Source of the DNA: Carboxylicivirga linearis
GTDB lineage: Bacteria; Bacteroidota; Bacteroidia; Bacteroidales; Marinilabiliaceae
Length of the DNA stretch: 64,000 bases
Direction: 5' to 3'
Assembly: GCF_018271995.1 (NCBI RefSeq)
Contig: NZ_JAGUCO010000015.1
Location: forward strand, 1-64,000
A program made the position numbers and the translations under genes. The notes beneath the pieces were generated by a model that saw nothing but the letters and a program-made list of their open reading frames with translations, did no database searches and had not been told where the DNA came from. Each line of letters starts with the position of its first letter. Positions within the stretch are counted from its first letter, which is position 1. This document shows, one piece after another, positions 26,638 through 43,314 of the stretch.

Positions 26638-26696
26638 CAAAAATGCTAATAAAATCTAACTTGTAACGGTACAAATTTACTAAATAGGTGGACAAT
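26638..26696 (-). promoter_or_regulatory. Promoter with tandem HTCS-type half-sites, GH127 gene
   Basis: On the minus strand: half-site ATTGTCCACCT (26696-26686), a second TTTGTACCGTT (26675-26665) 21 bp downstream, then exactly 19 bp to the -7-like CATTTTTG (26645-26638). The predicted leader is about 22 nt. The second half-site is the weaker match. Assignment to the HTCS encoded at 37376-41656 is inferred from the AraC-type spacing and from the other three promoters. Confidence 0.6.
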
Positions 26697-26715
26697 AATA
26701 TATATGAATTATTCA

Positions 26716-26726
26716 ATTGTACACCT
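26716..26726 (+). promoter_or_regulatory. Extra lone half-site (ATTGTACACCT)
   Basis: 10 of 11 bases match ATTGTCCACCT. It points towards the SusCD operon, is inverted relative to 26686-26696 with 19 bp between, and has no partner 21 bp away on its own strand. Confidence 0.35.
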
Positions 26727-26792
26727 TTTCATATTTACGGGTGTTTATATCTCTGGTTGATTTCTTAAAATATTGATTATCAGCTGTCATTA

Positions 26793-26851
26793 AAAGTCCA
26801 CCAAAAAGAATTAATTGTGAACCTTAGGATAATCTGCGTCACCTACTTTTG
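26793..26851 (+). promoter_or_regulatory. Promoter with tandem HTCS-type half-sites, SGBP-susC-susD operon
   Basis: Half-sites AAAGTCCACCA (26793-26803) and ATTGTGAACCT (26814-26824) are direct repeats with a 21-bp period, followed after 19 bp by an exact -7 box TACTTTTG (26844-26851). The predicted start near 26858 leaves a leader of about 200 nt before the first large gene. The rest of the 26610-27056 gap holds the GH127 promoter, one extra half-site and a 19-codon ORF. Confidence 0.65.
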
Positions 26852-26883
26852 AATTAACATTTCGAAACATATTCAGAGGTAAA

Positions 26884-26943
26884 ATGAAAAATACCTTAAA
26901 AAGGAGAAGGAAGTGTTTTGATGCTTGTGTTAAAAGGAGTTGA
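26884..26943 (+). CDS. Possible leader peptide ORF, 19 codons
   Basis: ATG to TGA encodes MKNTLKRRRKCFDACVKRS, a basic peptide with two cysteines. The ATG is about 26 nt after the predicted transcription start, the same position where the other three promoters of this type place the main start codon (21-24 nt). No homologue is recognised and there is no direct evidence of translation. Confidence 0.3.
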   Translation: MKNTLKRRRKCFDACVKRS

Positions 26944-27056
26944 ATATTCTCTGCGGAGTTGAGTTTTATTAAGCATTCTGATATGCTGAGATCGCTAAGA
27001 TTTAGGCATTCTTATATATAATGAATATACATTGAAAATTATTGTTAACTAAAGCT

Positions 27057-28790
27057 ATGAAAATGAAAATTAGAAACAAACTGATTAGGCGCGCTTTGTA
27101 CGCAACAGTTTTTGCTGCATTTGGCTTAGTTGGGTGTGAACAATCAGATAGGTATTTGATTGATGCACCCTCTGATCTTCAAGACAGGATCGACTCTATT
27201 GCAGATGCGAATGCAAGTAAAGATACTGGAGATACTACTTATATTAATATCTCTACATCGTTAGTTGGCCAGGAAGATTACAGTTCTGGCTGGTGGGCTG
27301 ATTTTTCAGATTACTTCACTATTCCAACAAATAAGCTATTACATCTTGAGTTTATTAACCATAATGGAGGTAGTGAAAATAATTGGAATAACTGGAATCT
27401 GGCTGTCACCAATGAAGTAGCAGATCGTGATGGTGATGGTTATGCAGAATACTTTGTATTACGCTCAGATGCTTACGGTTGGGGAGGTGGAATGGCTGAT
27501 ATAGATGAACGCTACGCTTTCGATCTGAATATGGTGTCACATGACTATCCTGATACGGATGGAGATGGTGATATTTGGAATGACTTCCGAGCTACCATGG
27601 ATGGAGCAACGGTTTCTATCGATATTGATCACTCAGCTACAGGTAATGTATTTGTTACGGCTACTGCTGTAGGAACAAATGGTACAACAATAACTGAAAC
27701 ATATCATCAAGGTGTTTCTGCATCTGATGATATTACAGCATTCTTAATTTGTGATGCCAGTTATTTCGAGATGAATACAGCATATTTGATTCCTTCAAAA
27801 GTAACTGTAGTAGAAGATGTAAGTCCGATATCAATTGAAGTTACAGGAACTCCGAAATTTGTTGAAATAGGAAATGAAGATTTCTGGGGAGATGGAGTGG
27901 CAACCGTAACCTTTGCAGATGGTTCAAGTGCTGAAGTAGACACAGCTGATGTCTCGTTTAGTGTAATACCAGATATGACTACATTGGGAGAAAAAACAGT
28001 TGCGGTAGCATACAGTAAAACCAAGCAAGGTAATTATGGTCCGGCAGTAACAACTTCTTACACTCTTGAGGTTACAAATGCAGTTACTTCATTGGAAATA
28101 ACTACTATGCCTGAAATGACAATCTATGCATTTTATGGCACAGAATCACCTGCATTTGATCCTGCTGGATTGGTTGTAACAGCTACTTATTCTGACGGTT
28201 CAACGGGTATACTTGAGAACTCAACTTTAGAATTTGAAATTCCTCTTGTTGCAGGTGATCAAAATGCGACGGTTTCATATGTAGGTGCAACAGGCACGGT
28301 AAGTACAACTTTACCGCTTACTATTGTAGAAGGTACCAGTCAGGTAGGAGCGATAGATTTCTCTACTGCCTGGTGGACTGAATTCTCAGATGATTATGCT
28401 GTAGCATCAGGTGAGAGTAAAGTAATTACCATGTACTGCTATTCAAACGAGGTTAATAACTGGCATAGCCCATGTACTATTCTTCGTAAGGCTGATAATG
28501 CTGAATATGGCGTAGTTCGTATGGATAACTTTGGTTGGGGTGCTGGTTACGAAGGTATTGCCACTGCAACAAATGATTGGAACTTTGATGTATTTGCATC
28601 CAATTTAAATGGTTCTAAAGTGGTAATCACAGTAACAAACAATGGCGACAATACGGCTGATATTAATTACGATGTTACCTATGCTACGGGAGAAGTTCAT
28701 TTCCAGAAATATGAAGGTATAGAAGTTGACAGCTCTGATTTGAATTGTGCTCTGGTTATTGAGGGTGCTTATGTCGTGATTACTGAATAA
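27057..28790 (+). CDS. Surface glycan-binding lipoprotein with duplicated aromatic-rich module
   Basis: A 577-residue lipoprotein (lipobox LVGC, Cys27). Two related modules of 145-175 residues lie at the ends (about 70-245 and 430-577). Both contain WWxxFSD, an NNW segment, AEYxVxRxDxxGWGxG, and a closing AYxxI-like strand. Copy 1 also has two acidic loops (DRDGDGYAE and DTDGDGD) that look like calcium sites. Between them lie two Ig-like domains (VTFADGSSAEV and TYSDGSTG). Position before susC and the exposed aromatics suggest a glycan-binding protein (SusE/F-like role, not homologous by eye). ATG 27057 is preferred over an in-frame TTG at 27042. Confidence 0.75.
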   Translation: MKMKIRNKLIRRALYATVFAAFGLVGCEQSDRYLIDAPSDLQDRIDSIADANASKDTGDTTYINISTSLVGQEDYSSGWWADFSDYFTIPTNKLLHLEFINHNGGSENNWNNWNLAVTNEVADRDGDGYAEYFVLRSDAYGWGGGMADIDERYAFDLNMVSHDYPDTDGDGDIWNDFRATMDGATVSIDIDHSATGNVFVTATAVGTNGTTITETYHQGVSASDDITAFLICDASYFEMNTAYLIPSKVTVVEDVSPISIEVTGTPKFVEIGNEDFWGDGVATVTFADGSSAEVDTADVSFSVIPDMTTLGEKTVAVAYSKTKQGNYGPAVTTSYTLEVTNAVTSLEITTMPEMTIYAFYGTESPAFDPAGLVVTATYSDGSTGILENSTLEFEIPLVAGDQNATVSYVGATGTVSTTLPLTIVEGTSQVGAIDFSTAWWTEFSDDYAVASGESKVITMYCYSNEVNNWHSPCTILRKADNAEYGVVRMDNFGWGAGYEGIATATNDWNFDVFASNLNGSKVVITVTNNGDNTADINYDVTYATGEVHFQKYEGIEVDSSDLNCALVIEGAYVVITE

Positions 28791-28813
28791 TTATAAAGAA
28801 TAATACAAATACT

Positions 28814-31800
28814 ATGAAATATATATATATAATCCTGTTGGGATTGTTGACACTACTACCGTCAATATATGCAGAAGGAAACGGCAAAGCCGACCAGACC
28901 GCAATGATTCAACAAGGGGAAATAACTGTGATGGGTAAAATCGTTGATGAAAACGGAGAACCCCTAATTGGTGCTACTATTCAGGAAAAAGGTACTACAA
29001 ATGGTATTATTACTGATATTGATGGTAATTTTTCTCTAAATGTTTCTTCCGATGCAACTCTAATACTATCATTTATTGGATACAATAGCGTTGAAATAAA
29101 TGTTGAAGGTAAAACAGCCCTCGGAAATATTACGATGGTAGCAGATACCAGAGAAATAGACCAGGTAGTTGTTATTGGTTATGGTACACAAAAGAAAGCT
29201 GACCTTACAGGTTCAGTAGCCATTGTTGATGCTGATGAGATGAAGAAACAATCGAATTCAAATATTTCAACAATGTTACAAGGTAAAGCATCTGGTGTTC
29301 AAATTACTTCAGATGGTCAGCCGGGAGCAGATCCAACCGTGCGTATTCGTGGTATTGGTTCATTTGGTAACACTAATCCTCTTTACGTTATTGATGGAGT
29401 ACCTATGGGAACAACCATTCGCGATTTCTCTCCAAACGATATCGAATCAATACAAATTCTTAAGGATGCCTCTGCTGCGGCAATCTATGGTTCTCGTGCA
29501 GGTAATGGTGTGATTATCATCACTACTAAACAAGGTAAGAAGAACTCACCAATGAAGATTGACTACAGCGGTTATTATGGTATAGATCAGATTCAAAAAG
29601 GAGTATACGATGTTATGAATGCTGATCAATACAAAGAATACTTAACCATGGCCTATGCAAACAGTGAAGTTGCTCTTCCGGGCGGTTATGATCCTGCAAG
29701 TAGTAATTATTTATGGAATACGCTTGCTGATGGTACCGAAGTTGCTTCAGTTGATACTGATTGGGTTGATGAAGTGTTTAAAACAGGGATTCGTCAAAAT
29801 CATAATATTAACCTTTCTGGTGGTGGTGAAAATAATACTTACAACATTGGTCTTGACTATTTTAGTCAGGAAGGTACGATGGAAGGTGCCGGTCCCAACT
29901 ACGACCGTTTCACAGCTCGTGTGAATAATACGATGGATGTTAAGTTTATTAAAATCAAAACAAGTTTGGTTTATAGCCATAGCGATCAGGATAATATGGC
30001 TCTTAGTAACGCCAACGAGTATGTACAAGGTCTTTATGGAGGTCAATATCCGGTAATGGCTTCAGCACTTCTTTTACCTTCTACTATTAAGGCGTATGAT
30101 GAATCAACATGGGTGCTTGATGACAGACTTTCTTCTGCCGTTGGATGGAGATATGATGCTTACGGTTATGGTACTTACTACGACGATGTTCATGGTGACT
30201 TGCGTATGACCAATGTGTTGATGACAAACAATTTATTGGAAAGAAATGTGAAAGTGGATCGTTTTGTTGGTTCTGCCAATACAAGTTTTGATATTTTAGA
30301 TATGCTTGGTGTGGCAGCCGGCAATCACAAGTTGTCATACAATCTTAACCTGGCATACAATAAAACAATAGTTAAGAATTATTCATTTGTACCGGCCTTT
30401 ATATCAAGTACAATCAACTATTTACCTAAAGAAAGTGAAGTTCTTAATCAGGAATATAGATACACAAGTAATTCTTTAATTGAAAACTATATAAACTATA
30501 GTGGGACATTTGGGAAGCATAACATTGATGCCGTTTTAGGGCAAACCTATCAGAGTGAATATTATCACTCGCTAAGAGGAACGGGTAATAACTTGTCTGA
30601 ACCCTATTATTTGCAGCTGGATAATGCGTCTGAAAGAAATTCATATAGTTATGAAAGCGATTGGATGATAGCGTCATATATTGGTCGTTTTAACTATAAT
30701 TACGATGGTAAGTACTTCTTTTCAGCAACAGCTCGTCGTGATGGTGCAAGTCATCTTTCACCAGAAGATCGTTTCGATATTTTCCCATCAGTATCAGCAG
30801 GATGGCGAATTGAACGAGAAAGCTTCTTTCCTGTAGATCCTTCTACCATCAGCTTGTTTAAGATTCGCGGTAGTTATGGAGAGTTGGGAAGTATTGAAAA
30901 CCTAGGAGTATATGATTATATGGCTACAATGCGCAGAAACGATTATACTTACAGTTTCGGTAATAATAAGGTGACGGGATCTGCTATTTCGGACTTTGTA
31001 AATACAGCCCTAAGATGGGAAAGCAAAAAAACGCTTGACTTTGGTTTTGATCTGGCTATGTTCAATAATCAGTTTGAGTTTAATTTCGACTGGTATGAAG
31101 CAACATCGGAAGCTTTGCACTATGGTGTAAAAGTTCCATCTTCAGGTGGTTTTACAAATGATAGAGTAAGTATGAATGCATCCACTATGGTTAACTCAGG
31201 ATTGGAATTCTTATTTACTTATCGCAACTACAACCATGCAGTTAAGTACGATATTTCTGCAAATGTTTCAACACTATCCAATGAGGTAACTAGTTTAGGA
31301 GTTGCCGATGAGCCTCAAAATGATGGAATATGTCGCACAGAGGTTGGTCGCGAAGTGGGATCATTCTATGGTTGGGTGCTAGAAGATGATGTGAAAAATG
31401 AAGATGGAACTTACAATATCAGAAATGGTATAGCTCAAAATCAGGCTGCTATCGATGGTCGTCAAAACGAAGACGGCATGTTTATTTCTCAACCGGGAGC
31501 TGAGGCAGGTGATCTTTTGTACAAAGATTTGAATGGCGATGGAACCATTAATGCCGAAGACAGAACCTTTATAGGTAGTGGTTTACCTGATGTTAACTTT
31601 GGTTTAAATGCACGTGTTGAATGGAATGGTTTCGACTTAAGTGTTGCTACATTTGGTGCTGCCGGTTTTAAAGCAGTTGATTTTGTTGATATGGAATTAC
31701 GTAATTCTTATGGTGCTACAAATAAAGATGTTAGTCTGTTAAATGCTTGGACACCTACTAATACAAATACTAATGTTCCGCGAGTGCAATATAAATCGGC

Positions 31801-32077
31801 TAATGCAACAAATAATTATTTCAGTGATAGATACATACAGGACGCATCCTATTTGAGGATTGCAAACGTGCAATTAGGTTATAATTTCCCTGATCAATGG
31901 TTTAATGGTGTGGTTAGTAATGTTCGTGTTTACGCTTCAGGTCAGAATTTATATACATTCAGCAAATACAAAGGTTATAATGTAGACTTTGCAGGCGGTA
32001 CATATACACCAGGTTATAATTATGCATCGTATCCAACACCGCGATCATTTATGTTTGGATTAAACCTATCATTCTAA
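28814..32077 (+). CDS. SusC/RagA family TonB-dependent outer-membrane transporter
   Basis: A 1087-residue outer-membrane importer that takes up oligosaccharides with TonB energy, paired with SusD. A signal peptide (about 1-20) is followed by a carboxypeptidase-regulatory-like domain (VMGKIVDENGEPLIGATI, about 37-115), the plug opening with VVVIGYGTQKKADLTGSV and holding VRIRGIGSFGNTNPLYVIDGVP, then the beta-barrel ending in FMFGLNLSF with a terminal Phe. Size is typical of SusC. It follows the glycan-binding gene by 23 bp and precedes susD by 30 bp, forming one operon under the 26793-26851 promoter. Confidence 0.96.
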   Translation: MKYIYIILLGLLTLLPSIYAEGNGKADQTAMIQQGEITVMGKIVDENGEPLIGATIQEKGTTNGIITDIDGNFSLNVSSDATLILSFIGYNSVEINVEGKTALGNITMVADTREIDQVVVIGYGTQKKADLTGSVAIVDADEMKKQSNSNISTMLQGKASGVQITSDGQPGADPTVRIRGIGSFGNTNPLYVIDGVPMGTTIRDFSPNDIESIQILKDASAAAIYGSRAGNGVIIITTKQGKKNSPMKIDYSGYYGIDQIQKGVYDVMNADQYKEYLTMAYANSEVALPGGYDPASSNYLWNTLADGTEVASVDTDWVDEVFKTGIRQNHNINLSGGGENNTYNIGLDYFSQEGTMEGAGPNYDRFTARVNNTMDVKFIKIKTSLVYSHSDQDNMALSNANEYVQGLYGGQYPVMASALLLPSTIKAYDESTWVLDDRLSSAVGWRYDAYGYGTYYDDVHGDLRMTNVLMTNNLLERNVKVDRFVGSANTSFDILDMLGVAAGNHKLSYNLNLAYNKTIVKNYSFVPAFISSTINYLPKESEVLNQEYRYTSNSLIENYINYSGTFGKHNIDAVLGQTYQSEYYHSLRGTGNNLSEPYYLQLDNASERNSYSYESDWMIASYIGRFNYNYDGKYFFSATARRDGASHLSPEDRFDIFPSVSAGWRIERESFFPVDPSTISLFKIRGSYGELGSIENLGVYDYMATMRRNDYTYSFGNNKVTGSAISDFVNTALRWESKKTLDFGFDLAMFNNQFEFNFDWYEATSEALHYGVKVPSSGGFTNDRVSMNASTMVNSGLEFLFTYRNYNHAVKYDISANVSTLSNEVTSLGVADEPQNDGICRTEVGREVGSFYGWVLEDDVKNEDGTYNIRNGIAQNQAAIDGRQNEDGMFISQPGAEAGDLLYKDLNGDGTINAEDRTFIGSGLPDVNFGLNARVEWNGFDLSVATFGAAGFKAVDFVDMELRNSYGATNKDVSLLNAWTPTNTNTNVPRVQYKSANATNNYFSDRYIQDASYLRIANVQLGYNFPDQWFNGVVSNVRVYASGQNLYTFSKYKGYNVDFAGGTYTPGYNYASYPTPRSFMFGLNLSF

Positions 32078-32107
32078 TATTTATAATCTGAAAAATAAAG
32101 AAGCTAT

Positions 32108-33949
32108 ATGAAACGTTTAAATATATATCTAGTAATATTCGCGATTATCGCAGGCCTTACAGCTTGTGATGACCAACTCGATGTTGAAAACCCGAATAGT
32201 CAAACAACTTTCGATTTTGGAAATACGGAGTCGGAACTTCAGGAGGCTGTAATTGCTTGTTACAATCGAATTCGTTTAGAAGGTACTTTTGCCCGTGTTG
32301 GTTATGTTATTGATGCTGTGCGTGGTGATGAAGTCTGGAACTCATCTCAACAATGGTATATAGATGCTGATAACCTTAATCATACATCTGCTTATTTTAT
32401 GGCTGAATGGCCATGGCGTGATAACTATCATGTGGTAAACCGTGCCAACTTTGTACTTAAAAAAGTGGAAGATGTTGAAATGTCAGAGGATTCCTATAAT
32501 GAGATTAAAGGACAGGCTCTTTTCTTAAGGTCATTGGCATACTACAATTTAGCTACTATTTATCAGGATGTTCCGTTGATTACTAATTACGACGATTATG
32601 TTGATATTAGCACTTTGTATGCAACTACTGCCAGCCAGGACTCAGTTTTAAATAAAGTAGAGGAAGATCTTACTGAAGCCATGAAAATATTGCCTTCACG
32701 CAATGAAGGTGGCGAATGGGCCAGTGGTCGTGCTACTTGTGGAGCTGCTGCAGGATACATGGCTCGCACGCTGATGTTCCGTCAGAAATATGCAGAAGCC
32801 TATACTGTATTAAAAGATATAATTGCCGGCGAATATGGAAATTATGCACTGGCTGCCGATTTTGGTGACAACTTTAAAGAAAGTACCGAGAATAATTCAG
32901 AGAGTCTTTTTGAAGTACAGTTTATGGACTTTGGAACCGGTGGAACTGATGAAGAATGGACTCCGGTAAATATAAGTCCAAATGCAACACAAGGGCATGC
33001 TGTTGAGGCTAACTATGCTCCTCAGGATAAAGGTAGTTGGGGTGACTGTGCAGCAGCACCATGGTTGTATAACCTATTTAAAAAAGAAACCTGTACAGAT
33101 GGATTCCCTGATCCACGATTGTATTGGACATTGGTTACATATGAGCCAGAATATAACGTTGTAACAGATGTTGCAACAGCGGCCTATCCTAATGGTGACC
33201 CTCGTACAAATGTGGCTTATAAATCAGAACTATCAGCAGTTACAGGTGATAAGGATAATGATTGGGTTCTGAATTATCGTTCCAACACTTCACAGGGAGG
33301 CATATCAATTGCTAAATGGACTTACGCTCGATTAGATATATCAGAAGATGTTATTGTGGGGTTAAGATCCGGTATTAACTTACGTTTGATGCGTTATAGT
33401 GATGTTTTATTACGTGCCGCAGAATGTGAGAATGAACTTAACGGACCAACACAAACAGCTATCGATTACATTAACGAAGTTCGTCAACGTGTAGCTCTAC
33501 CAGATCTTCAACTTTCTGATTTTCCAACAGCAGATGCTCTTTTTGAGCAAATTGCAAATGTGGAACGTCCAAAAGAGTTTGGTTGTGAAAACGGTCGTGG
33601 TACTGACTTAATTCGTTGGGGATTCTTCTATGATGATGGTCGTATGCAGCAGATTAAAGAGCATGCTTATTATAAATTGGCACCGAAACAACTTTATACC
33701 TGGGAAGAGGATGGAGAAGAAAAGCAAGAAGAGTTTGTTGTTGTTGATTTAGAGGAATTAACTTCAGAAAATGCCAGTGGTTCATCATACGATAGTTATG
33801 TTGTTGGACATGAGTATTTCCCTGTATGGCAAACAAATTTGGATACTAATCCTAATCTTACTGGAAACTCAGCCAATAATAACTCAGATAACAGTGTTGC
33901 ATTCTTTGAAAAAGGATATACTGTTCGCCCTGTTTATAATTTAGATTAA
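32108..33949 (+). CDS. SusD/RagB family surface glycan-binding lipoprotein
   Basis: A 613-residue lipoprotein (lipobox LTAC, Cys20), followed by an acidic DDQLDVENPN stretch typical of the Bacteroidota surface-export signal. The helical TPR-like SusD fold is seen in IKGQALFLRSLAYYNLATIYQDVPL (a shortened form of the conserved FLRAxxYFxL motif) and the C-terminal RLMRYSDVLLRAAECENEL and VERPKEFGCENGRGTDLIRWG. SusD caps the SusC pore and binds the glycan. A strong terminator follows, so this closes the operon. Confidence 0.95.
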   Translation: MKRLNIYLVIFAIIAGLTACDDQLDVENPNSQTTFDFGNTESELQEAVIACYNRIRLEGTFARVGYVIDAVRGDEVWNSSQQWYIDADNLNHTSAYFMAEWPWRDNYHVVNRANFVLKKVEDVEMSEDSYNEIKGQALFLRSLAYYNLATIYQDVPLITNYDDYVDISTLYATTASQDSVLNKVEEDLTEAMKILPSRNEGGEWASGRATCGAAAGYMARTLMFRQKYAEAYTVLKDIIAGEYGNYALAADFGDNFKESTENNSESLFEVQFMDFGTGGTDEEWTPVNISPNATQGHAVEANYAPQDKGSWGDCAAAPWLYNLFKKETCTDGFPDPRLYWTLVTYEPEYNVVTDVATAAYPNGDPRTNVAYKSELSAVTGDKDNDWVLNYRSNTSQGGISIAKWTYARLDISEDVIVGLRSGINLRLMRYSDVLLRAAECENELNGPTQTAIDYINEVRQRVALPDLQLSDFPTADALFEQIANVERPKEFGCENGRGTDLIRWGFFYDDGRMQQIKEHAYYKLAPKQLYTWEEDGEEKQEEFVVVDLEELTSENASGSSYDSYVVGHEYFPVWQTNLDTNPNLTGNSANNNSDNSVAFFEKGYTVRPVYNLD

Positions 33950-33971
33950 GAGGTTTTTTTGATAAAATACT

Positions 33972-34020
33972 ACTTCCTTATCGATGTACTTTTGTATGTT
34001 GATAAGGAAGTTTTTTTTTT
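33972..34020 (+). terminator. Terminator after susD
   Basis: Perfect 11-bp stem ACTTCCTTATC/GATAAGGAAGT (33972-33982 and 34001-34011), an 18-nt loop and a run of ten T. Confidence 0.92.
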
Positions 34021-34159
34021 GCCCAAATTGTTTGAGATGTAGGATAGAAATGGACGGTTTCTTCTCTTTCTTAGCCAGTACTAATAAGAAATTTCATCTT
34101 TTTTTTCTTATTGGATCAGTGGTAGTGGATGTTGGCATAATAGTAAAAGAAGGTATCTA

Positions 34160-34218
34160 TTTTTCTACATGAAATAAGATATAGTCCACCTCTGTAGATT
34201 ATTAATTACCTTATTTTG
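34160..34218 (+). promoter_or_regulatory. Promoter with tandem HTCS-type half-sites, GH43 lipoprotein gene
   Basis: Half-sites TTTTTCTACAT (34160-34170, weak) and ATAGTCCACCT (34181-34191, 10 of 11) are 21 bp apart, followed after 19 bp by TTATTTTG (34211-34218), one base from TAnnTTTG. The predicted leader is about 21 nt. The rest of the 33950-34245 gap is the susD terminator and unremarkable AT-rich sequence. Confidence 0.5.
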
Positions 34219-34245
34219 AATCAAAATCTTTTAAGCTTGTGAAAT

Positions 34246-35892
34246 ATGAAGAAATTTATTTGGGGATTGAGTGCAATAATGATTTTTGCCTGGATTGGAT
34301 GTTCTGATAGTGGAACAGACCCAAAGCCAGATCCAGATCCAGACCCGGATCCAGACCCGGAATATGTGATTCCAACATATAATGATGATTATACATGGTC
34401 AGGTGATGATATTGCCTCATGGAATAACAGATCACAATGGAACTTAGCTAATGTGCATGATCCATCTGTAGCTTATTACAAAGGATATTACTATATGTAT
34501 AATACAGATGCTTCGTTTGGAAACGAGCATGAAGGTCATGGGCATTTTCAAGGAAAGCGTTCAACTGATTTAGTTAATTGGGAATGGATTGGTGGACCTT
34601 TTTATGATCCTCCTGCTTGGGTGGCTGATTCACTGAATAATATTCGTTCACGAATGGGGTTAGATGCAATAGCTGAAAATGATATTCAGTATGGATATTG
34701 GGCTCCTGTAGTGCGAAAAATTACTGTTGGAGGGCAAGAAAAGTTACGCATGTATTATAGTATCATTATCGATAACTATATTAAAACGGGTAATCCTATA
34801 TCAGAAGCTTTTGATGGAAGCTGGACAGAGCGTGCATTTATTGGTATGTGCGAGTCAATTGATCCTGCCGGAGCTGTATGGGAAGACAAGGGATTTGTTA
34901 CTTGTTCATCATCAGACAGAGGATTAGATTATAGTCGTGCCAGTACATCGGACTGGAGCGGATATTTTTACTACAATGCAATCGATCCAACGTACGTTGT
35001 TACAGATGATGGAAAGCATTATTTAGTGCATGGCTCGTGGCACAGTGGCTTTAGTATCTTAGAAGTAAATGCCACAACAGGAAAGCCAATTAATGAGTTA
35101 GGCGAACCTTATGCATATAGTGTTAGTGCGTTAACCGCCAGATATGGTAAGAGGATTGCAACTCGCACACCTGGTTCACGTTGGCAAGGTAGCGAAGCAC
35201 CGGAAATAGTGTATAAAGATGGTTACTATTATCTGTTTATGGCTTATGATGGTTTAGATGTGCCTTATAACACTCGTGTTTGTCGATCTACTTCAATTGA
35301 TGGACCTTATTATGGTAGCGATGGAGCTAATGTAACCGAAGGAGCAGATTGTTACCCCATAATAACACATCCTTATCAGTTTAATAATCATTCTGGTTGG
35401 GTGGGTATTGCTCATTGTGCCGTTTTTCAGGATGAAGATGGCGATTGGTTTTATGCATCGCAAGGTCGGTTACCTGCTGGAACCAATGGTAATGATTATG
35501 CCAATGCCAATATGATGGGGCATGTACGAAAAATTCGCTGGACTGTAGGAGGATGGCCGGTAGTTATGCCTGAAAGATATACAGGTGTGCCAGAAAAAGA
35601 AATAACTGTTGATGAAATGGTTGGAAAATGGGAGTGTATAACCTTAAAATATAGTTATGGAAATATGCAAACATCAACTGACTTGATATTAGCAGACGAT
35701 GGAACTGCAAGTGGTGCTTTAAATGGAAGTTGGTCATTTAATAGCTCAACCAATAGATTAACCGTTGGTAATTTGACTTTGTATGTAGAGCGCGAAGTTG
35801 ATTGGGAGGCAAATCCAAGAGAGGTTACCATTGTATTCACAGGTCTTACCGATGATAGTAAGTACTCTTTGTGGGGTAAAAAGGTAGAGTAG
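34246..35892 (+). CDS. GH43 arabinan endo-1,5-alpha-L-arabinosidase-like surface lipoprotein
   Basis: A 548-residue lipoprotein (lipobox IGC, Cys19) with an acidic Pro-Asp repeat linker (six PD units), suggesting export to the cell surface. The five-bladed GH43 catalytic domain shows the three family acids: Asp72 in VHDPSV, Asp247 in AIDPTYV and Glu320 in SEAPEIVYKDGYYYLF. A C-terminal beta domain (about 455-548, ending YSLWGKKVE) is typical of extracellular endo-arabinanases of this group. Likely role: first cut of the arabinan backbone outside the cell. Endo activity is inferred from similarity. Confidence 0.88.
   Translation: MKKFIWGLSAIMIFAWIGCSDSGTDPKPDPDPDPDPDPEYVIPTYNDDYTWSGDDIASWNNRSQWNLANVHDPSVAYYKGYYYMYNTDASFGNEHEGHGHFQGKRSTDLVNWEWIGGPFYDPPAWVADSLNNIRSRMGLDAIAENDIQYGYWAPVVRKITVGGQEKLRMYYSIIIDNYIKTGNPISEAFDGSWTERAFIGMCESIDPAGAVWEDKGFVTCSSSDRGLDYSRASTSDWSGYFYYNAIDPTYVVTDDGKHYLVHGSWHSGFSILEVNATTGKPINELGEPYAYSVSALTARYGKRIATRTPGSRWQGSEAPEIVYKDGYYYLFMAYDGLDVPYNTRVCRSTSIDGPYYGSDGANVTEGADCYPIITHPYQFNNHSGWVGIAHCAVFQDEDGDWFYASQGRLPAGTNGNDYANANMMGHVRKIRWTVGGWPVVMPERYTGVPEKEITVDEMVGKWECITLKYSYGNMQTSTDLILADDGTASGALNGSWSFNSSTNRLTVGNLTLYVEREVDWEANPREVTIVFTGLTDDSKYSLWGKKVE
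34323..34362 (+). repeat. Hexanucleotide tandem repeat encoding a Pro-Asp linker
   Basis: Degenerate tandem CCAGAT/CCAGAC/CCGGAT units inside the GH43 gene, encoding the (PD)n linker after the lipid anchor. Such units can change copy number by slippage. Confidence 0.7.
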
Positions 35893-35900
35893 AATAATTG

Positions 35901-35926
35901 AAAGAGTATTGTTAAGTACTCTTTTT
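35901..35926 (+). terminator. Terminator after the GH43 lipoprotein gene
   Basis: 8-bp stem AAAGAGTA/TACTCTTT (35901-35908 and 35917-35924), loop of 8, T run to 35926. Confidence 0.7.
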
Positions 35927-35944
35927 AGACTAAAAATTAAATAT

Positions 35945-35990
35945 AAGCCCCGGTAAAGGATTAAAAACCTTTATCGGGGCTTATTTTATT
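35945..35990 (+). terminator. Second, stronger terminator before the epimerase gene
   Basis: 15-bp stem with one G-T pair (35945-35959 and 35968-35982, core AAGCCCCG/CGGGGCTT), followed by a T-rich tail. Confidence 0.85.
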
Positions 35991-36092
35991 CACCTCTCAG
36001 ATATATAATCAAGAAAAAAAGTTAATTTTACTTTTAATAAATTAATCAACCAGGGAATAATCCCTTGAAGTTAAACTAATATTTAGATTCAT

Positions 36093-37217
36093 ATGAAAAA
36101 ATTGCTATTTGCCTTGACAATTGCTTCTTTTTTTACGGCATGTCAATGCGATAAAGCTAAGCTTGACTTAATTGATGCTAATGCTTTTGAAACAACCCTT
36201 AACGATAAGGCTATCAAGTTGTATTCCATTACCAATGCCAATGGTTTAACAGCTCAGTTAACCAATTACGGAGCCCGTGTTGTTAGCCTTTGGGTTCCAG
36301 ACAAAGAAGGTACCTTTGCTGATGTCAGTCTTGGTTTCCGCACTGGTGATGAATACCTTAATAATAAAGAAAACTTCTATGGAGCAACCATTGGTCGTTA
36401 CGGCAACCGTATTGGAAAAGCGCAGTTTGTAATTGAAGAAGATACTTTCAATATCGATATGAATGATGGAGAAAATACTTTGCACGGTGGTGCCGGAGGG
36501 TTCTTCTCAAAAATTTGGGATGTAAAACCAGTTGGAACCAACTCATTGGAGTTTACATATACATCTGTTGATGGTGAGCAAGGATATCCGGGTAATGTTG
36601 ATGTAAAAGTTGTTTTTGAATTAACAGATAAAAATGAGTTAAAGATTGAGTATTTTGCTTCAACAGATAAAACAACTCATGTTAATTTAACAAACCATAC
36701 TTATTTTAACTTGGGTGGCGAAGCTGCAGGTACTATTAATGATCACTTATTAATGATAAATGCTGATGCTTTTACTCCTGTTGATGGCGGATTAATACCT
36801 ACAGGTGAATTGGCTCCGGTTGAAGGAACTCCATTTGATTTTAGAAAAGCTACAGCAATTGGTGATCGTGTTAATGCTGATGATGAACAATTAAGGCTAG
36901 GTGGTGGATACGATCATAACTGGGTGCTTAATCAGGCTGTTGATGGATTAACATTAGCTGCAACATTAAAAGAACCGGTTTCAGGTCGTGTAATGGATGT
37001 ATACACTAACGAGCCTGGTATTCAGTTTTATGGCGGTAACTTTATTGATAATAAAGATATGGGTAAGTATGGTAAAACTTTAAATTATCGCGAGGCTCTT
37101 TGTTTAGAAACTCAACATTTCCCAGATACACCAAATAAACCTGATTTTCCTTCAACTTTGTTAAATCCTGGAGAAGACTATTATTCAATTTGTGTTTACG
37201 CTTTCAAAGCAGAATAG
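36093..37217 (+). CDS. Aldose 1-epimerase (mutarotase), lipoprotein
   Basis: A 374-residue GalM-type enzyme that interconverts alpha and beta anomers of free aldoses such as arabinose, galactose or glucose. Lipobox FFTAC (Cys17) places it in the periplasm or on a membrane rather than in the cytoplasm. Family motifs: NYGARVVSLWVPD, YGATIGRYGNRIGKA, LHGGAGGF, the catalytic His in LTNHTYFNLGG and catalytic Glu in LCLETQHFPDTPNKP. It stands alone between terminators. A near-consensus -7 box TACTTTTA lies at 36029-36036, and the tandem half-sites seen at its neighbours are absent. Confidence 0.93.
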   Translation: MKKLLFALTIASFFTACQCDKAKLDLIDANAFETTLNDKAIKLYSITNANGLTAQLTNYGARVVSLWVPDKEGTFADVSLGFRTGDEYLNNKENFYGATIGRYGNRIGKAQFVIEEDTFNIDMNDGENTLHGGAGGFFSKIWDVKPVGTNSLEFTYTSVDGEQGYPGNVDVKVVFELTDKNELKIEYFASTDKTTHVNLTNHTYFNLGGEAAGTINDHLLMINADAFTPVDGGLIPTGELAPVEGTPFDFRKATAIGDRVNADDEQLRLGGGYDHNWVLNQAVDGLTLAATLKEPVSGRVMDVYTNEPGIQFYGGNFIDNKDMGKYGKTLNYREALCLETQHFPDTPNKPDFPSTLLNPGEDYYSICVYAFKAE

Positions 37218-37236
37218 CTCAAAAAAAATATTTTAT

Positions 37237-37276
37237 AAAGAAAAGAAGGTTGTTTTTGCAACCTTCTTTTCTTTTT
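37237..37276 (+). terminator. Terminator after the epimerase gene
   Basis: Perfect 16-bp stem (37237-37252 and 37259-37274, core GAAGGTTG/CAACCTTC), a 6-nt loop and a T-rich tail. A-rich on the left, so possibly active in both directions. Confidence 0.9.
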
Positions 37277-37291
37277 CATGGCAGTCTCTGT

Positions 37292-37299
37292 TATATTTG
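37292..37299 (+). promoter_or_regulatory. Predicted -7 element for the HTCS gene (TATATTTG)
   Basis: Exact TAnnTTTG just after the terminator, giving a leader of about 70 nt before ATG 37376. No ATTGTCCACCT-like half-site occurs at the -19 bp spacing. Confidence 0.6.
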
Positions 37300-37375
37300 T
37301 ACATAACTTTAAATAACAAATCAGCCCAGGTAAGATAAGAGTTAAAGAGTTTGTTTGGTTGTATTAAAGCTGTGT

Positions 37376-40300
37376 ATGAAAAAATTCCCTCTTAAAATAG
37401 TATTATTTCTTTTCTATGCTTTTGTCTCATTAAAAGTTTCTGGTCAGAGAAATCCTCGAATCGAATATATTAATATCGAAAACGGATTGCCGCAAAACAC
37501 GGTTCAATCCATTACAAAGGATGCTTATGGATTTATTTGGTTCGGAACCGATAATGGTTTATGCAGATACGATGGTTATGGATTTGAATATTACTATTCA
37601 AATGGTGCTGAAGATCAATTATGGCATAACCGCATTTTACATTTAACCACCAACGGCAAAAATTATTTATTTGTTTCCAATCAAAAGGGCCTGCAAATTC
37701 TTAATCTATTAACCGGAAAGTTTGTTACAATACAACAAAGTAAGGTTAATCTAATCTTTAAACAAGATGTTGTAAATAGCTTTTTTGATGGAGATAATCT
37801 GTGGGTAATTACAAGAACCAATGGGATATATAAAATATCCGAAAATACAAATGTCTTTGAGGTGATTGGTCATTACTGGACTTCTGAAGAATCTCCTTCT
37901 CCGCTTAATATCTATAAAAGTAAAGAAGGAGAAATGTTATTGGGTACAGAAGCAGGGATATTTAAGTTTGATTCTTCGAAGGAGAAGTTTGTTGCTTACC
38001 AACTAAATCACAATACAATAAATTCTGAAACGATTCAAAGTATCTTTGATGATGAAGAAAACCTTTATTTAGGTACAACTAATGGCATGTACCTTTGCGG
38101 GAAACAATCAGGAGCAATAGAATGGTTTAGTCATGATACAGATAGAAAGAAAAGTATAAACCACTCAAATGTTACAGCTATCTCAAAAGTATCTGATAAT
38201 ATTTTGTTAATTGGTACCTTGGGTGGGTTAAGTACATTAGATATCAAAAGTGGTGATGTAAACAGGTTCAGGCTTTTTAATAATCGGGAAGAGCAATATC
38301 AGGCTGAATTTATTCGCTCTATTTATGCCGATAATCAAGGTAGTATATGGATTGGAGGGGATAAAATTGGATTGGCTTATTTTAATGTGCATCAAAAAAA
38401 CTTCAATTCATTAGATAATTCTAACCCCGATTTTGCAGTTGTCAACAGTAACATTATAAATTCTATTTATAAAAGCAATAAAAATCTTTGGGTTGGAACA
38501 GCGGGTTACGGTTTGGTTCGTATCAATCAAGAGAGCAATCAGACAAAAGTGTATCGTACCCAATCAGATAATTCTAATTCTATTGAAAGTAATTTTATCA
38601 CTTCAATCTATGAAGATGAAAGCAACCAAATATGGGTTGGTACATGGGGAATGGGTATTCAGGTGCTCCAAAATAATGGTCGTTTTAAGGCCTTACATGA
38701 AAGTGATGGATTAGTAGGAGAGTTTATTTCTACTATGTATGTGAATCGTCAAGGTGACTTGATAGTGGGTGCACAGCAAGGACTTTGTATTTACAATAAG
38801 CAAGAGGGACGATTCTATCAAATAAGGCCGCTTGGCGGAATTCCACAGGATTGGGAAGTGGGGTGTATTCAGGAAGATAAGAATGGTTTTTACTGGATAG
38901 GTACAACCAATGGTCTATACCGCTTTGATGGTAAGTTGGTGAATAAAAATGAGATGACTGTAATGTCTCGTTACGAACTAGTTGAGTATAAAGAAACGGA
39001 TGGCAAGAATAGTTTGCCCAACAACTATATTACTTCACTTACAACCGATATTGATGGAAATATTTGGATGGGCACCTATGGTGGAGGTATTGCCCGGTGT
39101 GTTGAAACCAGTAATGGCAATTATGAGTTTATCAGCTTTGGGCAAGAAGATGGATTGGCAAATAATGTGGTTTATAGTGTTTTGTGTGATGACGAAAATA
39201 ATTTGTGGATAACGACAGAAAATGGCTTATCGAAATTTAATATTAAAGAAAATCATTTCACCAATTACTATCGGCAGGATGGCTTAAGAAACAATCAATA
39301 TTACTGGTCGGCCGGATTTAAAGATAAGGAAGGTAACATATATATTGGGGGGTTGAAAGGGCTTAATTACTTTCATCCCAATCAAATTTATAATTATCCG
39401 TACGATACACGAGTTGCCATAACGGCATTGAATATTTATAATCATAAAGTAACCCCCGGCGATAAATATCATGGTCAGGTGCCTTTAAAAAGAGCATCGT
39501 TTGCCAACGATACAATTACATTATCATATAAGGATAACGTGTTTTCTATGGAGTTTTCAGCAATGAATTTTCTTCATTCTTCTAAAATAAAATATGCCTA
39601 TCGTTTGTCAGGTGTTGATAAAGACTGGGTTGAAGTGGATTCAAAGCGAAGGATTGCATCGTATACAAATCTTGCTGGTGGAACCTATTTATTTCAATTG
39701 AAATCTACCGATTTGGAAGGGGTATGGAACGATGAATCTACCGAAGTATACATCGAAATTATTCCACCATTCTGGCAGGAAGTATGGTTTAAATTGTTAC
39801 TTATTTTGGTATTAATCGTGCTAGGTTCATCCTATGTTAGATATCGTTCTTTTAGAATAACAATGCAGAAGAAACGCCTTGAACAATTGGTTAAAGAGCG
39901 AACAATTGAAATCGACAAGAAAAACAAACAGCTAGAAGAAACATCTGAGCGTTTGCTTGAAAACAATGAGCAACTGGAAAAACGAAGTGCTAAAATCGAG
40001 AAGCAAAAGGTACAGTTAGAAGAGAAAAATAAGGAAATTGTTTCGCAAAGAGACCAGCTAATTGATCTTAACAAGCAGGTGGAAAGTATTCATCAAATGC
40101 GGATGCAGTTTTTTACTAATATATCTCACGAATTCAGAACACCATTAACACTTATTCTTTCGCCAATAGAACGTTTGTTAACCGGAAAGAATAGTACGTT
40201 ACCTTCAGGAGTGCGAAATTCAATTGAGGTTGTAAAGCGAAATGCCGAACGATTATTATTGTTAACAAATCAGATATTAACTTTTCGAAAGCTGGAAGCA

Positions 40301-41656
40301 GGTAAATTAAAAATCATGCTTCACAAAGCGATATTAGATGAAGTGATAGTTGAAATTGGTGAGGCTTTTAAAGTTTTGGCTGACGAAAAGGATATCGACT
40401 ATTCAATTAATGTTGAAGTAGCTGATTACAGTGGTTGGTGCGATAAATCAAAGTTGGAAGACATACTTTTTAATCTTTTGGCCAATGCTTTCAAATATAC
40501 TCCCGAAACGGGTAAAGTGGATCTGTCATTGCGTTTGAAAACCAGTAACAATCACAAAAAAACGATTGAGGTAGTCGTAACCGATAGTGGGCAAGGAATA
40601 AAACCAGATGTTATTGAAAAAGTGTTTGATCGTTTCTATCGCGCAGATAATAACCTGGGATTTGGAACTGGTATTGGTTTATCGTTAGTGAAAGAATTAG
40701 TAGATAAACAAAATGGAAATATATCAGTATCTAGCGAGTATGGAAAAGGTTCAACTTTTGTGTTGGAATTACCTATTGAACTGGAAGGATTCGATGACTA
40801 TACTGTAATAGAAGATGAAGTAGCAGAATCGGTATCGATAGATGAAAAAGTTAGTCTAATAAAAAAGGTGGCTGACGAAGATCAAACATCACTAAATGGC
40901 GATACTGATAAAGCAAAAGTATTAGTTGTTGAAGATAATGATGATCTTAGGTATTTTCTGGCTGAATCGCTCGCTGATGAATACAATGTTTATACAGCAA
41001 AAGATGGTAAGGATGGTTATGACTTATCTTTGAAGCAAGAGGTTGATTTGGTAGTTAGTGATATAATGATGCCACGCTTGAATGGCCTGGATTTATGTAA
41101 ACAATTAAAAAATAATTTAAATACCAGTCATCTTCCTGTTATTCTGCTGTCGGCAAAAGGAATGGAAGAAAATCAAGTAGAAGGTTTAGGAGTAGGAGCG
41201 GATGATTATATTACCAAACCGTTTAATCTTAGTCTGCTGCTGGCCAAGATGAAGAGCTTGATAGAGAACCGTCAGAAGCTTAAATCCATTTATCTCCAAG
41301 ATACCACCGGAGAAGAGGAACTTAGGGGAGGTTCGCTGGACGATGATTTTATGCAGAAGGTTAATGCTGTAGTTTCGGAATTGTATGCCGATCCTTCTTT
41401 TGATATTGAGACATTCGCTTCAAAAATGTACGTAAGTCGGAGTTTATTATATAAAAAATTGAAAGCATTAACAAATGTATCGCCAAACGAATATATTAAT
41501 GTCTTCCGATTGAAGAAGTCAATTGCTTTGTTAAAAACAAAAAAATACCAGGTTGCAGAAGTTGCCGTTATGGTTGGCTTCAATGATCCAAAATACTTTA
41601 GTCGTGTATTTAAAAAATTCTATAAATGTTCACCAAGTGAATATGCTAATTCTTAA
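37376..41656 (+). CDS. Hybrid two-component system sensor/regulator (HTCS)
   Basis: A 1426-residue one-protein signalling system. Order: signal peptide (about 1-24); periplasmic two-component propeller repeats (about 25-680, units such as GFIWFGTDNGL and NIWMGTYGGG); Y_Y_Y domain (about 720-797); one membrane helix (about 803-823); coiled coil (about 828-908); HisKA with His918 in NISHEFRTPL; HATPase (NLLANAFKYTPETG, DSGQGI, GTGIGLSLV); receiver with Asp1229 in VVSDIMMPRLNG; and an AraC-type DNA-binding domain to the C-terminus. HTCS proteins sense oligosaccharides in the periplasm and activate their own PUL. ATG 37376 gives a clean signal peptide; an in-frame TTG at 37355 is rejected. Confidence 0.96.
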   Translation: MKKFPLKIVLFLFYAFVSLKVSGQRNPRIEYINIENGLPQNTVQSITKDAYGFIWFGTDNGLCRYDGYGFEYYYSNGAEDQLWHNRILHLTTNGKNYLFVSNQKGLQILNLLTGKFVTIQQSKVNLIFKQDVVNSFFDGDNLWVITRTNGIYKISENTNVFEVIGHYWTSEESPSPLNIYKSKEGEMLLGTEAGIFKFDSSKEKFVAYQLNHNTINSETIQSIFDDEENLYLGTTNGMYLCGKQSGAIEWFSHDTDRKKSINHSNVTAISKVSDNILLIGTLGGLSTLDIKSGDVNRFRLFNNREEQYQAEFIRSIYADNQGSIWIGGDKIGLAYFNVHQKNFNSLDNSNPDFAVVNSNIINSIYKSNKNLWVGTAGYGLVRINQESNQTKVYRTQSDNSNSIESNFITSIYEDESNQIWVGTWGMGIQVLQNNGRFKALHESDGLVGEFISTMYVNRQGDLIVGAQQGLCIYNKQEGRFYQIRPLGGIPQDWEVGCIQEDKNGFYWIGTTNGLYRFDGKLVNKNEMTVMSRYELVEYKETDGKNSLPNNYITSLTTDIDGNIWMGTYGGGIARCVETSNGNYEFISFGQEDGLANNVVYSVLCDDENNLWITTENGLSKFNIKENHFTNYYRQDGLRNNQYYWSAGFKDKEGNIYIGGLKGLNYFHPNQIYNYPYDTRVAITALNIYNHKVTPGDKYHGQVPLKRASFANDTITLSYKDNVFSMEFSAMNFLHSSKIKYAYRLSGVDKDWVEVDSKRRIASYTNLAGGTYLFQLKSTDLEGVWNDESTEVYIEIIPPFWQEVWFKLLLILVLIVLGSSYVRYRSFRITMQKKRLEQLVKERTIEIDKKNKQLEETSERLLENNEQLEKRSAKIEKQKVQLEEKNKEIVSQRDQLIDLNKQVESIHQMRMQFFTNISHEFRTPLTLILSPIERLLTGKNSTLPSGVRNSIEVVKRNAERLLLLTNQILTFRKLEAGKLKIMLHKAILDEVIVEIGEAFKVLADEKDIDYSINVEVADYSGWCDKSKLEDILFNLLANAFKYTPETGKVDLSLRLKTSNNHKKTIEVVVTDSGQGIKPDVIEKVFDRFYRADNNLGFGTGIGLSLVKELVDKQNGNISVSSEYGKGSTFVLELPIELEGFDDYTVIEDEVAESVSIDEKVSLIKKVADEDQTSLNGDTDKAKVLVVEDNDDLRYFLAESLADEYNVYTAKDGKDGYDLSLKQEVDLVVSDIMMPRLNGLDLCKQLKNNLNTSHLPVILLSAKGMEENQVEGLGVGADDYITKPFNLSLLLAKMKSLIENRQKLKSIYLQDTTGEEELRGGSLDDDFMQKVNAVVSELYADPSFDIETFASKMYVSRSLLYKKLKALTNVSPNEYINVFRLKKSIALLKTKKYQVAEVAVMVGFNDPKYFSRVFKKFYKCSPSEYANS

Positions 41657-41739
41657 ATACTACCAGTAATGAGGAATATATTCCATGTAGATTGAATAAT
41701 ACACCATTAAGGCACTTTTAATTGTAGGTATATTGTACA

Positions 41740-41798
41740 TCTATCCACCTTATAAAAACGATTGTCCTCTTAATAGCGGCCTTCCCGAGCTACTTTTG
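41740..41798 (+). promoter_or_regulatory. Promoter with tandem HTCS-type half-sites, GH43-GH51 operon
   Basis: Half-sites TCTATCCACCT (41740-41750) and ATTGTCCTCTT (41761-41771) are 21 bp apart, followed after 19 bp by an exact -7 box TACTTTTG (41791-41798). The predicted leader is about 24 nt. A further ATTGTACATCT at 41732-41742 overlaps the first half-site. Confidence 0.65.
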
Positions 41799-43307: not shown

Positions 43308-43314
43308 ATTAATA

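What the first reader, a model, noticed from the sequence alone, without database searches (positions are those of the whole stretch)
26638..41798. Four PUL promoters share one exact operator-promoter geometry, a candidate HTCS regulon code
Seen: at 26696-26638 (-), 26793-26851, 34160-34218 and 41740-41798, two direct 11-bp half-sites resembling ATTGTCCACCT start exactly 21 bp apart, and the downstream one ends exactly 19 bp before a TAnnTTTG-like -7 box (CATTTTTG, TACTTTTG, TTATTTTG, TACTTTTG). Known: AraC-type domains bind direct half-sites about two helical turns apart, next to the promoter. Inference: these are the binding sites of the HTCS at 37376-41656, controlling GH127, SGBP-SusC-SusD, GH43, and GH43-GH51. 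Individual half-sites vary (7 to 11 of 11 matches); the constant spacing is the strongest argument.
Basis: partly seen in the sequence, partly recalled or inferred. Interest (0 to 1): 0.8.

Follow-up and report, generated by a model that had tools for sequence, protein, structure and literature searches.

The report
Arabinan regulator operator-promoter signature
Four promoters in a plant-polysaccharide (arabinan) gene cluster carry the same pair of repeated DNA boxes at a fixed distance from the start signal, very probably the landing site of the sensor-regulator encoded in the cluster; the arrangement is of a known kind but is unusually rigid and recurs in many related bacteria.

Summary
A model trained only on 12 orthologous sites from three congeneric genomes, this genome held out, ranks the four sites 1-4 in the window and 1, 2, 3 and 6 in the 6.05 Mb genome; the best hit elsewhere has E 0.064. 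Across 16 orthologous promoters the gap to the -7 box is 19 bp in all 16 and the period 21 bp in 15, while the 19-bp spacer has diverged. The same half-site and geometry recur before arabinan-type PUL genes in other Bacteroidales.

Best reading: activator operators of the window's HTCS, at the -33 position of sigma-ABfr promoters of an arabinan regulon. Direct repeats averaging 21 bp were already predicted for 16 B. thetaiotaomicron HTCSs (Ravcheev 2013, PMC3878776), so this is a new member of a known kind. The fixed phase to the -7 box and its depth of conservation are the additions; my searches did not find them in print. Binding, phosphorylation dependence and start sites are untested.

The parts
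26686..26696 (-). GH127 promoter, half-site box 1 (ATTGTCCACCT)
   Evidence: island conserved in G001, G002, G013
26665..26675 (-). GH127 promoter, half-site box 2 (TTTGTACCGTT, weakest box, 6 of 11)
26638..26645 (-). GH127 -7 box CATTTTTG (CAnnTTTG in 4 of 4 genomes)
26793..26803 (+). SGBP-SusC-SusD promoter, half-site box 1 (AAAGTCCACCA)
26814..26824 (+). SGBP-SusC-SusD promoter, half-site box 2 (ATTGTGAACCT)
26844..26851 (+). SGBP-SusC-SusD -7 box TACTTTTG
34160..34170 (+). GH43 (34246-35892) promoter, half-site box 1 (TTTTTCTACAT)
34181..34191 (+). GH43 promoter, half-site box 2 (ATAGTCCACCT)
34211..34218 (+). GH43 -7 box TTATTTTG (identical in 4 of 4 genomes)
41740..41750 (+). GH43-GH51 promoter, half-site box 1 (TCTATCCACCT)
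41761..41771 (+). GH43-GH51 promoter, half-site box 2 (ATTGTCCTCTT)
41791..41798 (+). GH43-GH51 -7 box TACTTTTG
37376..41656 (+). HTCS regulator: Reg_prop and Y_Y_Y sensor, HisKA, HATPase_c, receiver, AraC-type HTH_18; recognition region GFNDPKYFSRVF
   Evidence: Pfam; C-terminus; nearest solved receiver-DNA-binding chain 12aw, E 4.5e-57
37292..37299 (+). Putative -7 box TATATTTG of the HTCS gene itself, without the operator pair (internal negative control)
   Evidence: box conserved in 4 of 4 genomes; best period-21 pair score 14-15 of 22
24258..26609 (-). Target: GH127 beta-L-arabinofuranosidase
27042..33949 (+). Target operon: SGBP-like protein (no Pfam hit), SusC, SusD
   Evidence: terminator-like hairpin 33972-34011 after SusD
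34246..35892 (+). Target: GH43 + GH43_C; nearest solved relatives include endo-1,5-alpha-L-arabinanases
   Evidence: terminator-like hairpin 35943-35984
41829..44841 (+). Target operon: GH43 arabinanase-like and GH51 alpha-L-arabinofuranosidase
   Evidence: terminator-like hairpin 44851-44875
26716..26726 (-). Additional conserved inverted half-site (AGGTGTACAAT) 30 bp upstream of GH127 box 1; role unknown
   Evidence: A(G/A/T)GTG(T/C)ACAA(T/A)T in 4 of 4 genomes

Best explanation
The four elements are operator-promoters of one arabinan regulon, each bound and activated by the AraC-type output domain of the HTCS encoded at 37376-41656. Inferred working: an arabino-oligosaccharide binds the periplasmic propeller sensor, the fused kinase phosphorylates its own receiver, and the freed AraC domains of the dimeric protein sit head to tail on one face of the DNA on two half-sites (deep consensus TTTGTCCACCT) 21 bp, two helical turns, apart. 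Box 2 ends 19 bp before the TAnnTTTG -7 box of the sigma-ABfr promoter, so it covers or abuts the place of the -33 element, and the regulator can contact RNA polymerase there in the manner of a class II activator. Shown here: sequence, spacing, conservation, genome specificity, target functions, and co-occurrence with one HTCS recognition-helix type. Inferred: binding, activation (not repression), phosphorylation dependence, ligand, and start sites.
For: Held-out model R1, from 12 sites in 3 other genomes, finds the four sites as ranks 1-4 of the window: E 2.2e-10, 2.8e-10, 5.3e-5, 0.0016, next 0.043; in the genome ranks 1, 2, 3 and 6, best elsewhere E 0.064. Pairwise identity among orthologues: box 1 209/264, box 2 197/264, -7 box 179/192, 19-bp spacer 223/456; gap 19 in 16 of 16, period 21 in 15 of 16. 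In 80 related loci, 1.43 Mb: half-site pairs at period 21 = 32, in 25 loci; 28 other periods from 12 to 40 have 0-5 each; 18 of the 32 have a (T/C)(A/T)nnTTTG at exactly 19. A test blind to half-site letters: 24 of 159 TAnnTTTG anchors (21 loci) have a period-21 repeat, other periods at most 6 of 159. Upstream of SGBP in 62 usable of 80 loci, (21,19) occurs in 22; the other 335 combinations have mean 0.10, maximum 8. Scan of 295 genomes of the order, E <= 0.001: 32 hits in 18 genomes, about 0.3 expected from the stated E-values; of 27 hits outside this genome with loci, genes behind them include SusC 3, GH43 4, GH51 2. HTCS homologues lie beside the hits in L204, L205, L215, L223/L298 and L297. 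20 of 20 strong-motif loci with a readable HTCS carry NDPKYF in the second helix-turn-helix, against 1 of 20 HTCS C-termini in other HTCS regions of the genus. In print: 16 HTCS motifs as direct repeats averaging 21 bp (PMC3878776, section 8); EMSA of the arabinan HTCS BT0366 on its PUL promoters (PMC5061871, passages).
Against: No binding or start-site data for this organism. Box 2 of GH127 is poor (6 of 11), and that site does not stand out at genome scale (E 0.39). In 40 of 62 relatives the SGBP upstream region has no scored (21,19) hit at threshold 18. The helix is not a marker of the motif alone: 13 of 14 HTCS C-termini in the related loci WITHOUT a strong motif also carry NDPKYF (10 of those 13 loci show weaker boxes in the geometry), L197 of G013 and L292 of a no-hit genome carry it without a strong motif or R2 hit, and only 9 of 30 fetched HTCS loci from hit genomes carry it. 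At a looser threshold (19 of 22) the other-HTCS regions also show more pairs at period 21 (13) than at other periods (mean 3.96, maximum 9), so half-site specificity rests on the strict threshold (0 there). The link of motif to HTCS is correlation plus adjacency, and the helix comparison was made after seeing the data.
Confidence: 0.86

Rival explanations
1. The boxes bind a different regulator of arabinose or arabinan genes, such as an AraR-type (NrtR family) repressor, a Crp-like protein (BT4338 type) or a stand-alone AraC protein, not the HTCS.
For: In B. thetaiotaomicron three PULs are under dual HTCS and AraR control, and BT4338 is also needed (PMC4666351 and PMC5061871, passages). In 5 of 25 strong-motif loci no HTCS was read in the fetched stretch (L033, L036, L061, L100, L106).
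Against: The printed 41-bp AraR probe contains AGTGTAAAAAAGACACT, inverted and of other letters. A direct repeat at 21 bp is what was predicted for HTCSs. HTCS homologues lie next to hits even where the rest of the PUL differs, and in 20 of 20 strong-motif loci with a readable HTCS the helix type is one.
Confidence: 0.08
2. Ordinary sigma-ABfr promoters whose upstream conservation reflects shared ancestry or chance, with no operator.
For: The four genomes are congeners and gene order is partly conserved. The inter-box spacer is conserved too (179/240), so conservation is not confined to the boxes. Two -7 boxes fit the housekeeping consensus.
Against: The 19-bp spacers diverged (223/456 identical) while boxes and distances stayed. 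The HTCS gene's own promoter keeps TATATTTG in 4 of 4 genomes but has no operator. A period-21 peak blind to letters appears in the 80 loci.
Confidence: 0.03
3. The HTCS binds these sites as a repressor when unphosphorylated, with box 2 blocking the -33 region.
For: Box 2 lies at the -33 position. One HTCS, BT2391, is reported to repress its PUL (PMC11253607, passages).
Against: That paper links possible repression to deviation from the S/CHIP-DK inhibitory motif; this HTCS has SHLP at that place (alignment), a conservative variant (my judgement). The arabinan HTCS BT0366 activates.
Confidence: 0.06

Closest known systems
HTCS_Ara-1 (BT0366) and HTCS_Ara-2 (BT3049) regulons of Bacteroides thetaiotaomicron (Ravcheev et al. 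2013, PMC3878776; RegPrecise)
   Same: HTCS with AraC-type output, arabinan genes as targets, direct-repeat sites averaging 21 bp apart
   Different: Different family of Bacteroidales. Their logos and site letters were not available to me, so identity of the half-site is untested. The passages I read state no fixed distance to the -7 box
BT0366 arabinan control (Schwalm et al. 2016, PMC5061871)
   Same: HTCS binds promoters of its own PUL in EMSA; the legend of its Fig. S3 says predicted sites and -7 boxes are marked together (figure not seen)
   Different: BT0366 mRNA rose 15-fold, taken there as positive autoregulation; here the HTCS gene's promoter has no operator
E. coli AraC at araBAD (recalled, no call)
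   Same: Direct half-sites two helical turns apart, the promoter-proximal one touching the -35 element
   Different: Soluble one-component sensor, sigma-70 promoter, looping through a distant site
sigma-ABfr promoters of Bacteroides (Ryan et al. 2020, PMC7366714)
   Same: TAnnTTTG -7 element
   Different: The TTTG -33 element is here replaced or overlapped by box 2 (inference)

Membership tests
HTCS regulator family | Reg_prop/Y_Y_Y sensor, HisKA, HATPase_c, receiver and AraC-type HTH in one chain | tested here: met
   Pfam; nearest solved sensors 4a2l and 3v9f, nearest receiver-DNA-binding chain 12aw
HTCS operator (direct-repeat site) | Two direct half-sites about 21 bp apart upstream of PUL genes | tested here: met
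   15 of 16 orthologous promoters at 21 bp, one at 22
HTCS operator (direct-repeat site) | Conservation across genomes that hold the orthologous HTCS | tested here: met
   G001, G002, G013 (HTCS 66-68% identical) keep all four sites (they are R1's training genomes); the 10 other congeners, whose best HTCS matches are at most 42% identical, have best R1 hits of E 1.1e-4 to 0.22
HTCS operator (direct-repeat site) | Specific binding by the cognate HTCS output domain | not testable with these tools
   needs EMSA or footprinting
sigma-ABfr promoter | TAnnTTTG at -7 | tested here: inconclusive
   2 of 4 exact, 2 of 4 one base off but conserved; no start-site data
HTCS_Ara-1/Ara-2 regulon orthologue | Same half-site letters as the RegPrecise motif | not tested
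Arabinan PUL | SusC/D pair plus arabinan-active enzymes | tested here: met
   by homology only: GH127, GH43 x2 with arabinanases among nearest solved relatives, GH51, SusC/D

The most novel reading that the evidence does not exclude
A rigid operator-promoter grammar, half-site / 21 bp / half-site / 19 bp / TAnnTTTG, holds for HTCS-activated promoters throughout the Bacteroidales or the phylum, while only the half-site letters change with the AraC recognition helices (GFNDPKYF reading TTTGTCCACCT). Regulons of thousands of uncharacterised HTCSs could then be read from sequence alone. In some families of the order this arabinan address has spread to pentose-phosphate genes (transketolase) and pectin enzymes.
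Probability: 0.33. Interest if true: 0.72.

Novelty: new member of a known kind. Interest (0 to 1): 0.52.

Why it matters
Genomes of this group carry many HTCSs (this one has about a dozen full-length ones with an AraC domain), and the DNA address of most is unproven. Here a two-box plus -7 model trained on other genomes picks out one regulon in a 6 Mb genome with little background, gives exact probes for EMSA and 5'-end mapping, and pairs one recognition helix with one half-site, which is a start towards a readable specificity code. The fixed 19-bp phase also predicts how the regulator touches RNA polymerase at promoters where its box takes the -33 place.

Tried and rejected
Generality beyond this HTCS type. 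I took 20 regions: 19 around other HTCSs of the genus and one stretch following the window (L196, no HTCS read). There the -7-anchored period test was inconclusive (37 anchors; cells at period 21 = 11, but period 32 = 14 and period 28 = 10), although unanchored repeats do peak at 21 (18 against a mean of 6.0 and maximum of 14 for other periods; divergent regions are counted on both strands). Footprinting of three groups of orthologous HTCS loci tested 10 genes with upstream gaps of 90 bp or more: one clear conserved period-21 repeat with other letters (before a DUF6055 gene, L184, L199, L202) and one weak. The clear one lies in a stretch that is conserved as a whole, so it proves little.

A first exact-pattern genome search used an over-strict pattern and found nothing; it was replaced by models. 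The first SGBP test (34 loci, 23 anchors) was replaced. In one search one site is counted at several gaps (146 cells at period 21, 0-21 at others); one search recounts distinct anchors and the report uses that. An AraR site as the explanation was rejected from the printed probe. The genome hit at G000 C137:29270 (E 0.064) precedes a SusD-like gene but lacks both TCCAC cores. The best hits in congeners without the HTCS (G009, G011) have at most one good box; G011's precedes an alpha-L-fucosidase. The terminator scan found 9 sites against 6.0 +/- 2.4 in shuffles, so single hairpins are suggestive only.

Rows dropped: 18 of 80 loci had no usable SGBP upstream region; 13 of 40 deep sites were dropped as 80% or more alike before model R2. 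Rumen loci L069, L075-L077 and L079 are near-copies and count repeatedly. R2 contains the window's four sites, so its window hits are not independent (at E 0.001 it returned 3 of the 4 in this genome); of its 27 other loci only L210 is a training site. Genome scans score a capped set of candidates per genome (150), so misses are possible and counts are lower bounds. The G013 GH127 row is framed one base off, which lowers the box-1 figure slightly.
Full report
WHAT IS THERE. The window (contig C66 of a 6.05 Mb genome in 180 contigs) comes from a Marinilabiliaceae-like member of the Bacteroidales. The closest named record found is 'Marinilabiliaceae bacterium A049' (L031), which is the same stretch as G001. 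The cluster holds GH127 (-), then SGBP-like, SusC, SusD, GH43, aldose epimerase, HTCS, GH43 and GH51. Both GH43 proteins have endo-1,5-alpha-L-arabinanases among their nearest solved relatives. Terminator-like hairpins follow SusD, the first GH43 and GH51 (the total number in the scan, 9, is not clearly above shuffles, 6.0 +/- 2.4), and a hairpin visible in the sequence precedes the HTCS gene and is kept in its orthologues.

THE OBSERVATION. All four sites exist at the stated places, with starts 21 bp apart and box 2 ending 19 bp before the -7 box. Half-site matches run from 6 to 11 of 11, slightly wider than stated. Because that consensus and threshold came from these sites, I built a sequence-only covariance model (R1) from the 12 orthologous sites of G001, G002 and G013, leaving this genome out. 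Without filters it ranks the four sites 1-4 in the window (E 2.2e-10, 2.8e-10, 5.3e-5, 0.0016; next 0.043) and 1, 2, 3 and 6 in the genome. The GH127 site is the weakest and would not be significant on its own at genome scale (E 0.39).

FOOTPRINT. G001, G002 and G013 have the orthologous HTCS (66-68% identity) and the same genes, rearranged in G013. Aligning upstream regions shows conserved islands at the two boxes and the -7 box. Gap 19 is kept in 16 of 16 promoters and period 21 in 15 of 16; the G013 GH127 promoter has 22. Pairwise identity is 0.79 (box 1), 0.75 (box 2), 0.93 (-7 box) and 0.49 in the 19-bp spacer. The 10-bp inter-box spacer is also conserved (0.75) and A-rich, suggesting longer half-sites. 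In G013 a further site (E 4.4e-7) that was not in the training set lies before a LamG-domain protein gene divergent from GH127. The HTCS gene itself has a conserved TATATTTG in 4 of 4 genomes but no operator pair, an internal negative control.

DEPTH. In 80 loci of Bacteroidales records that encode a relative of the first GH43 (the best 80 of 177), half-site pairs occur 32 times at period 21, in 25 loci, and 0-5 times at each other period from 12 to 40. Of the 32, 18 have a (T/C)(A/T)nnTTTG box at exactly 19; several others have a near-box such as TAATTTAG or TACTTTTA at 19. The 20 comparison regions of the genus give 0 at period 21 with the same threshold, but 13 (mean elsewhere 3.96, maximum 9) at a looser one. 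A test that ignores the letters and only asks whether any 11-mer is repeated upstream of TAnnTTTG gives 24 of 159 anchors for period 21 and at most 6 of 159 for any other period. In 62 of 80 loci with a usable SGBP start, 22 have (21,19), against a mean of 0.10 and maximum of 8 for 335 other geometries; 40 of 62 do not. Near-identical rumen loci inflate these counts; after removal of sites 80% or more alike, 27 of 40 sites remained. A second model (R2; those 27 plus the window's four) scanned over 295 genomes of the order gives 32 hits in 18 genomes at E <= 0.001, where about 0.3 would be expected from the stated E-values, which are rough. Of 27 hits outside this genome with loci (2 more had none), 26 have a readable ORF behind them and 19 of these have a Pfam match: SusC (3), GH43 (4), GH51 (2), LamG (2), transketolase (2), glucuronate isomerase, GH28, GH3, RGL11, a sorting-tail protein and a fasciclin protein. 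Of the 7 without a Pfam match, L210 is an SGBP homologue (and a training site), L213 has an SGBP homologue and L231 a SusC homologue in the locus. HTCS homologues lie in the same locus at L204, L205, L215, L223/L298 and L297; L213 shows only a kinase part.

WHICH REGULATOR. In strong-motif loci with an HTCS within the fetched stretch, 20 of 20 HTCSs, plus this one and the G002 and G013 orthologues, carry NDPKYF in the second helix-turn-helix; in 5 of 25 no HTCS was read. Of 20 HTCS C-termini in the other HTCS regions of the genus, 1 does (L197, no strong motif found). The signature is not exclusive to strong-motif loci: 13 of 14 HTCS C-termini in the remaining related loci have it, and 10 of those 13 loci show the geometry with weaker boxes. 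In genomes with R2 hits 9 of 30 fetched HTCS loci have the helix, against 1 of 30 in 16 genomes without hits. The nearest solved receiver-DNA-binding chain, 12aw, also reads GFNDPKYFS.

MECHANISM. From family knowledge: in B. thetaiotaomicron HTCSs the receiver masks the DNA-binding domain until phosphorylated (Gao, Wu and Stock 2024, PMC11253607; abstract and passages). BT0366, the arabinan HTCS, responds to arabino-oligosaccharides and shifts its PUL promoters (PMC5061871, passages). Two direct half-sites 21 bp apart place two AraC domains on one DNA face. Box 2 ends 19 bp before TAnnTTTG, at or over the -33 position of the sigma-ABfr promoter (element positions from PMC7366714, section 8), as expected for an activator that contacts RNA polymerase. 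The application to this HTCS is inference.

WHAT IS KNOWN. Ravcheev et al. 2013 (PMC3878776; outline, section 8 and passages) predicted for 16 HTCSs direct repeats with an average distance of 21 bp and same-face dimers, so the architecture is of a known kind. I found no statement of a fixed distance to the -7 box in searches or in the passages read; supplements were closed, and subscription papers are mostly not in the library. PMC10766802, PMC10994844, PMC4666351 and PMC12125979 were read in passages only.

VERDICT. It is a new member of a known kind. The rigid phase to the -7 box, its recurrence across the order and the pairing of one helix type with one half-site are the parts worth following. 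On checking I lowered two odds slightly (best explanation 0.87 to 0.86, novel case 0.35 to 0.33), because the helix also marks related loci without a strong motif and the looser pair scan is raised at period 21 in other HTCS regions too.

Noticed in passing
window 26716-26726 (-): A third, inverted half-site (AGGTGTACAAT) 30 bp upstream of GH127 box 1, kept in 4 of 4 genomes, also in G013 where GH127 is not beside SGBP. Could bind a further AraC domain or serve the divergent promoter.
   Followed up: partly
window 26852-27041: The SGBP mRNA leader would be about 165-218 nt in the four genomes, mostly unconserved except TTAACATTTnGAAACA just after the -7 box. Possible initial-transcription or leader element.
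   Followed up: no
window 37216-37375: The HTCS gene has its own conserved hairpin-plus-TATATTTG arrangement without operator, so it seems outside its own regulon, unlike BT0366, whose mRNA rose 15-fold in B. thetaiotaomicron.
   Followed up: partly
L220 (G217) and L225 (G298): Operator-like hits 24 and 77 bp before transketolase genes in two other families of the order, in L225's genome followed by a ribose-5-phosphate isomerase-type gene (E 3.2e-4 and 1.4e-4): possible extension of the arabinan regulon to pentose metabolism.
   Followed up: partly
L143:15902-15968 (+): In G013 a fifth operator (E 4.4e-7) precedes a LamG-domain protein gene divergent from GH127.
   Followed up: partly
L184:10970-11170 (-), L199, L202: Promoter beside another HTCS (helix GFSSPTYFTRRF) has a conserved period-21 repeat with other letters and a TGTTTTAG box about 19 bp on: candidate for the same grammar with another address.
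   Followed up: partly
window 20623-23730 (-): A 1035-residue protein with only a C-terminal sorting domain recognised by Pfam lies downstream of GH127.
   Followed up: no
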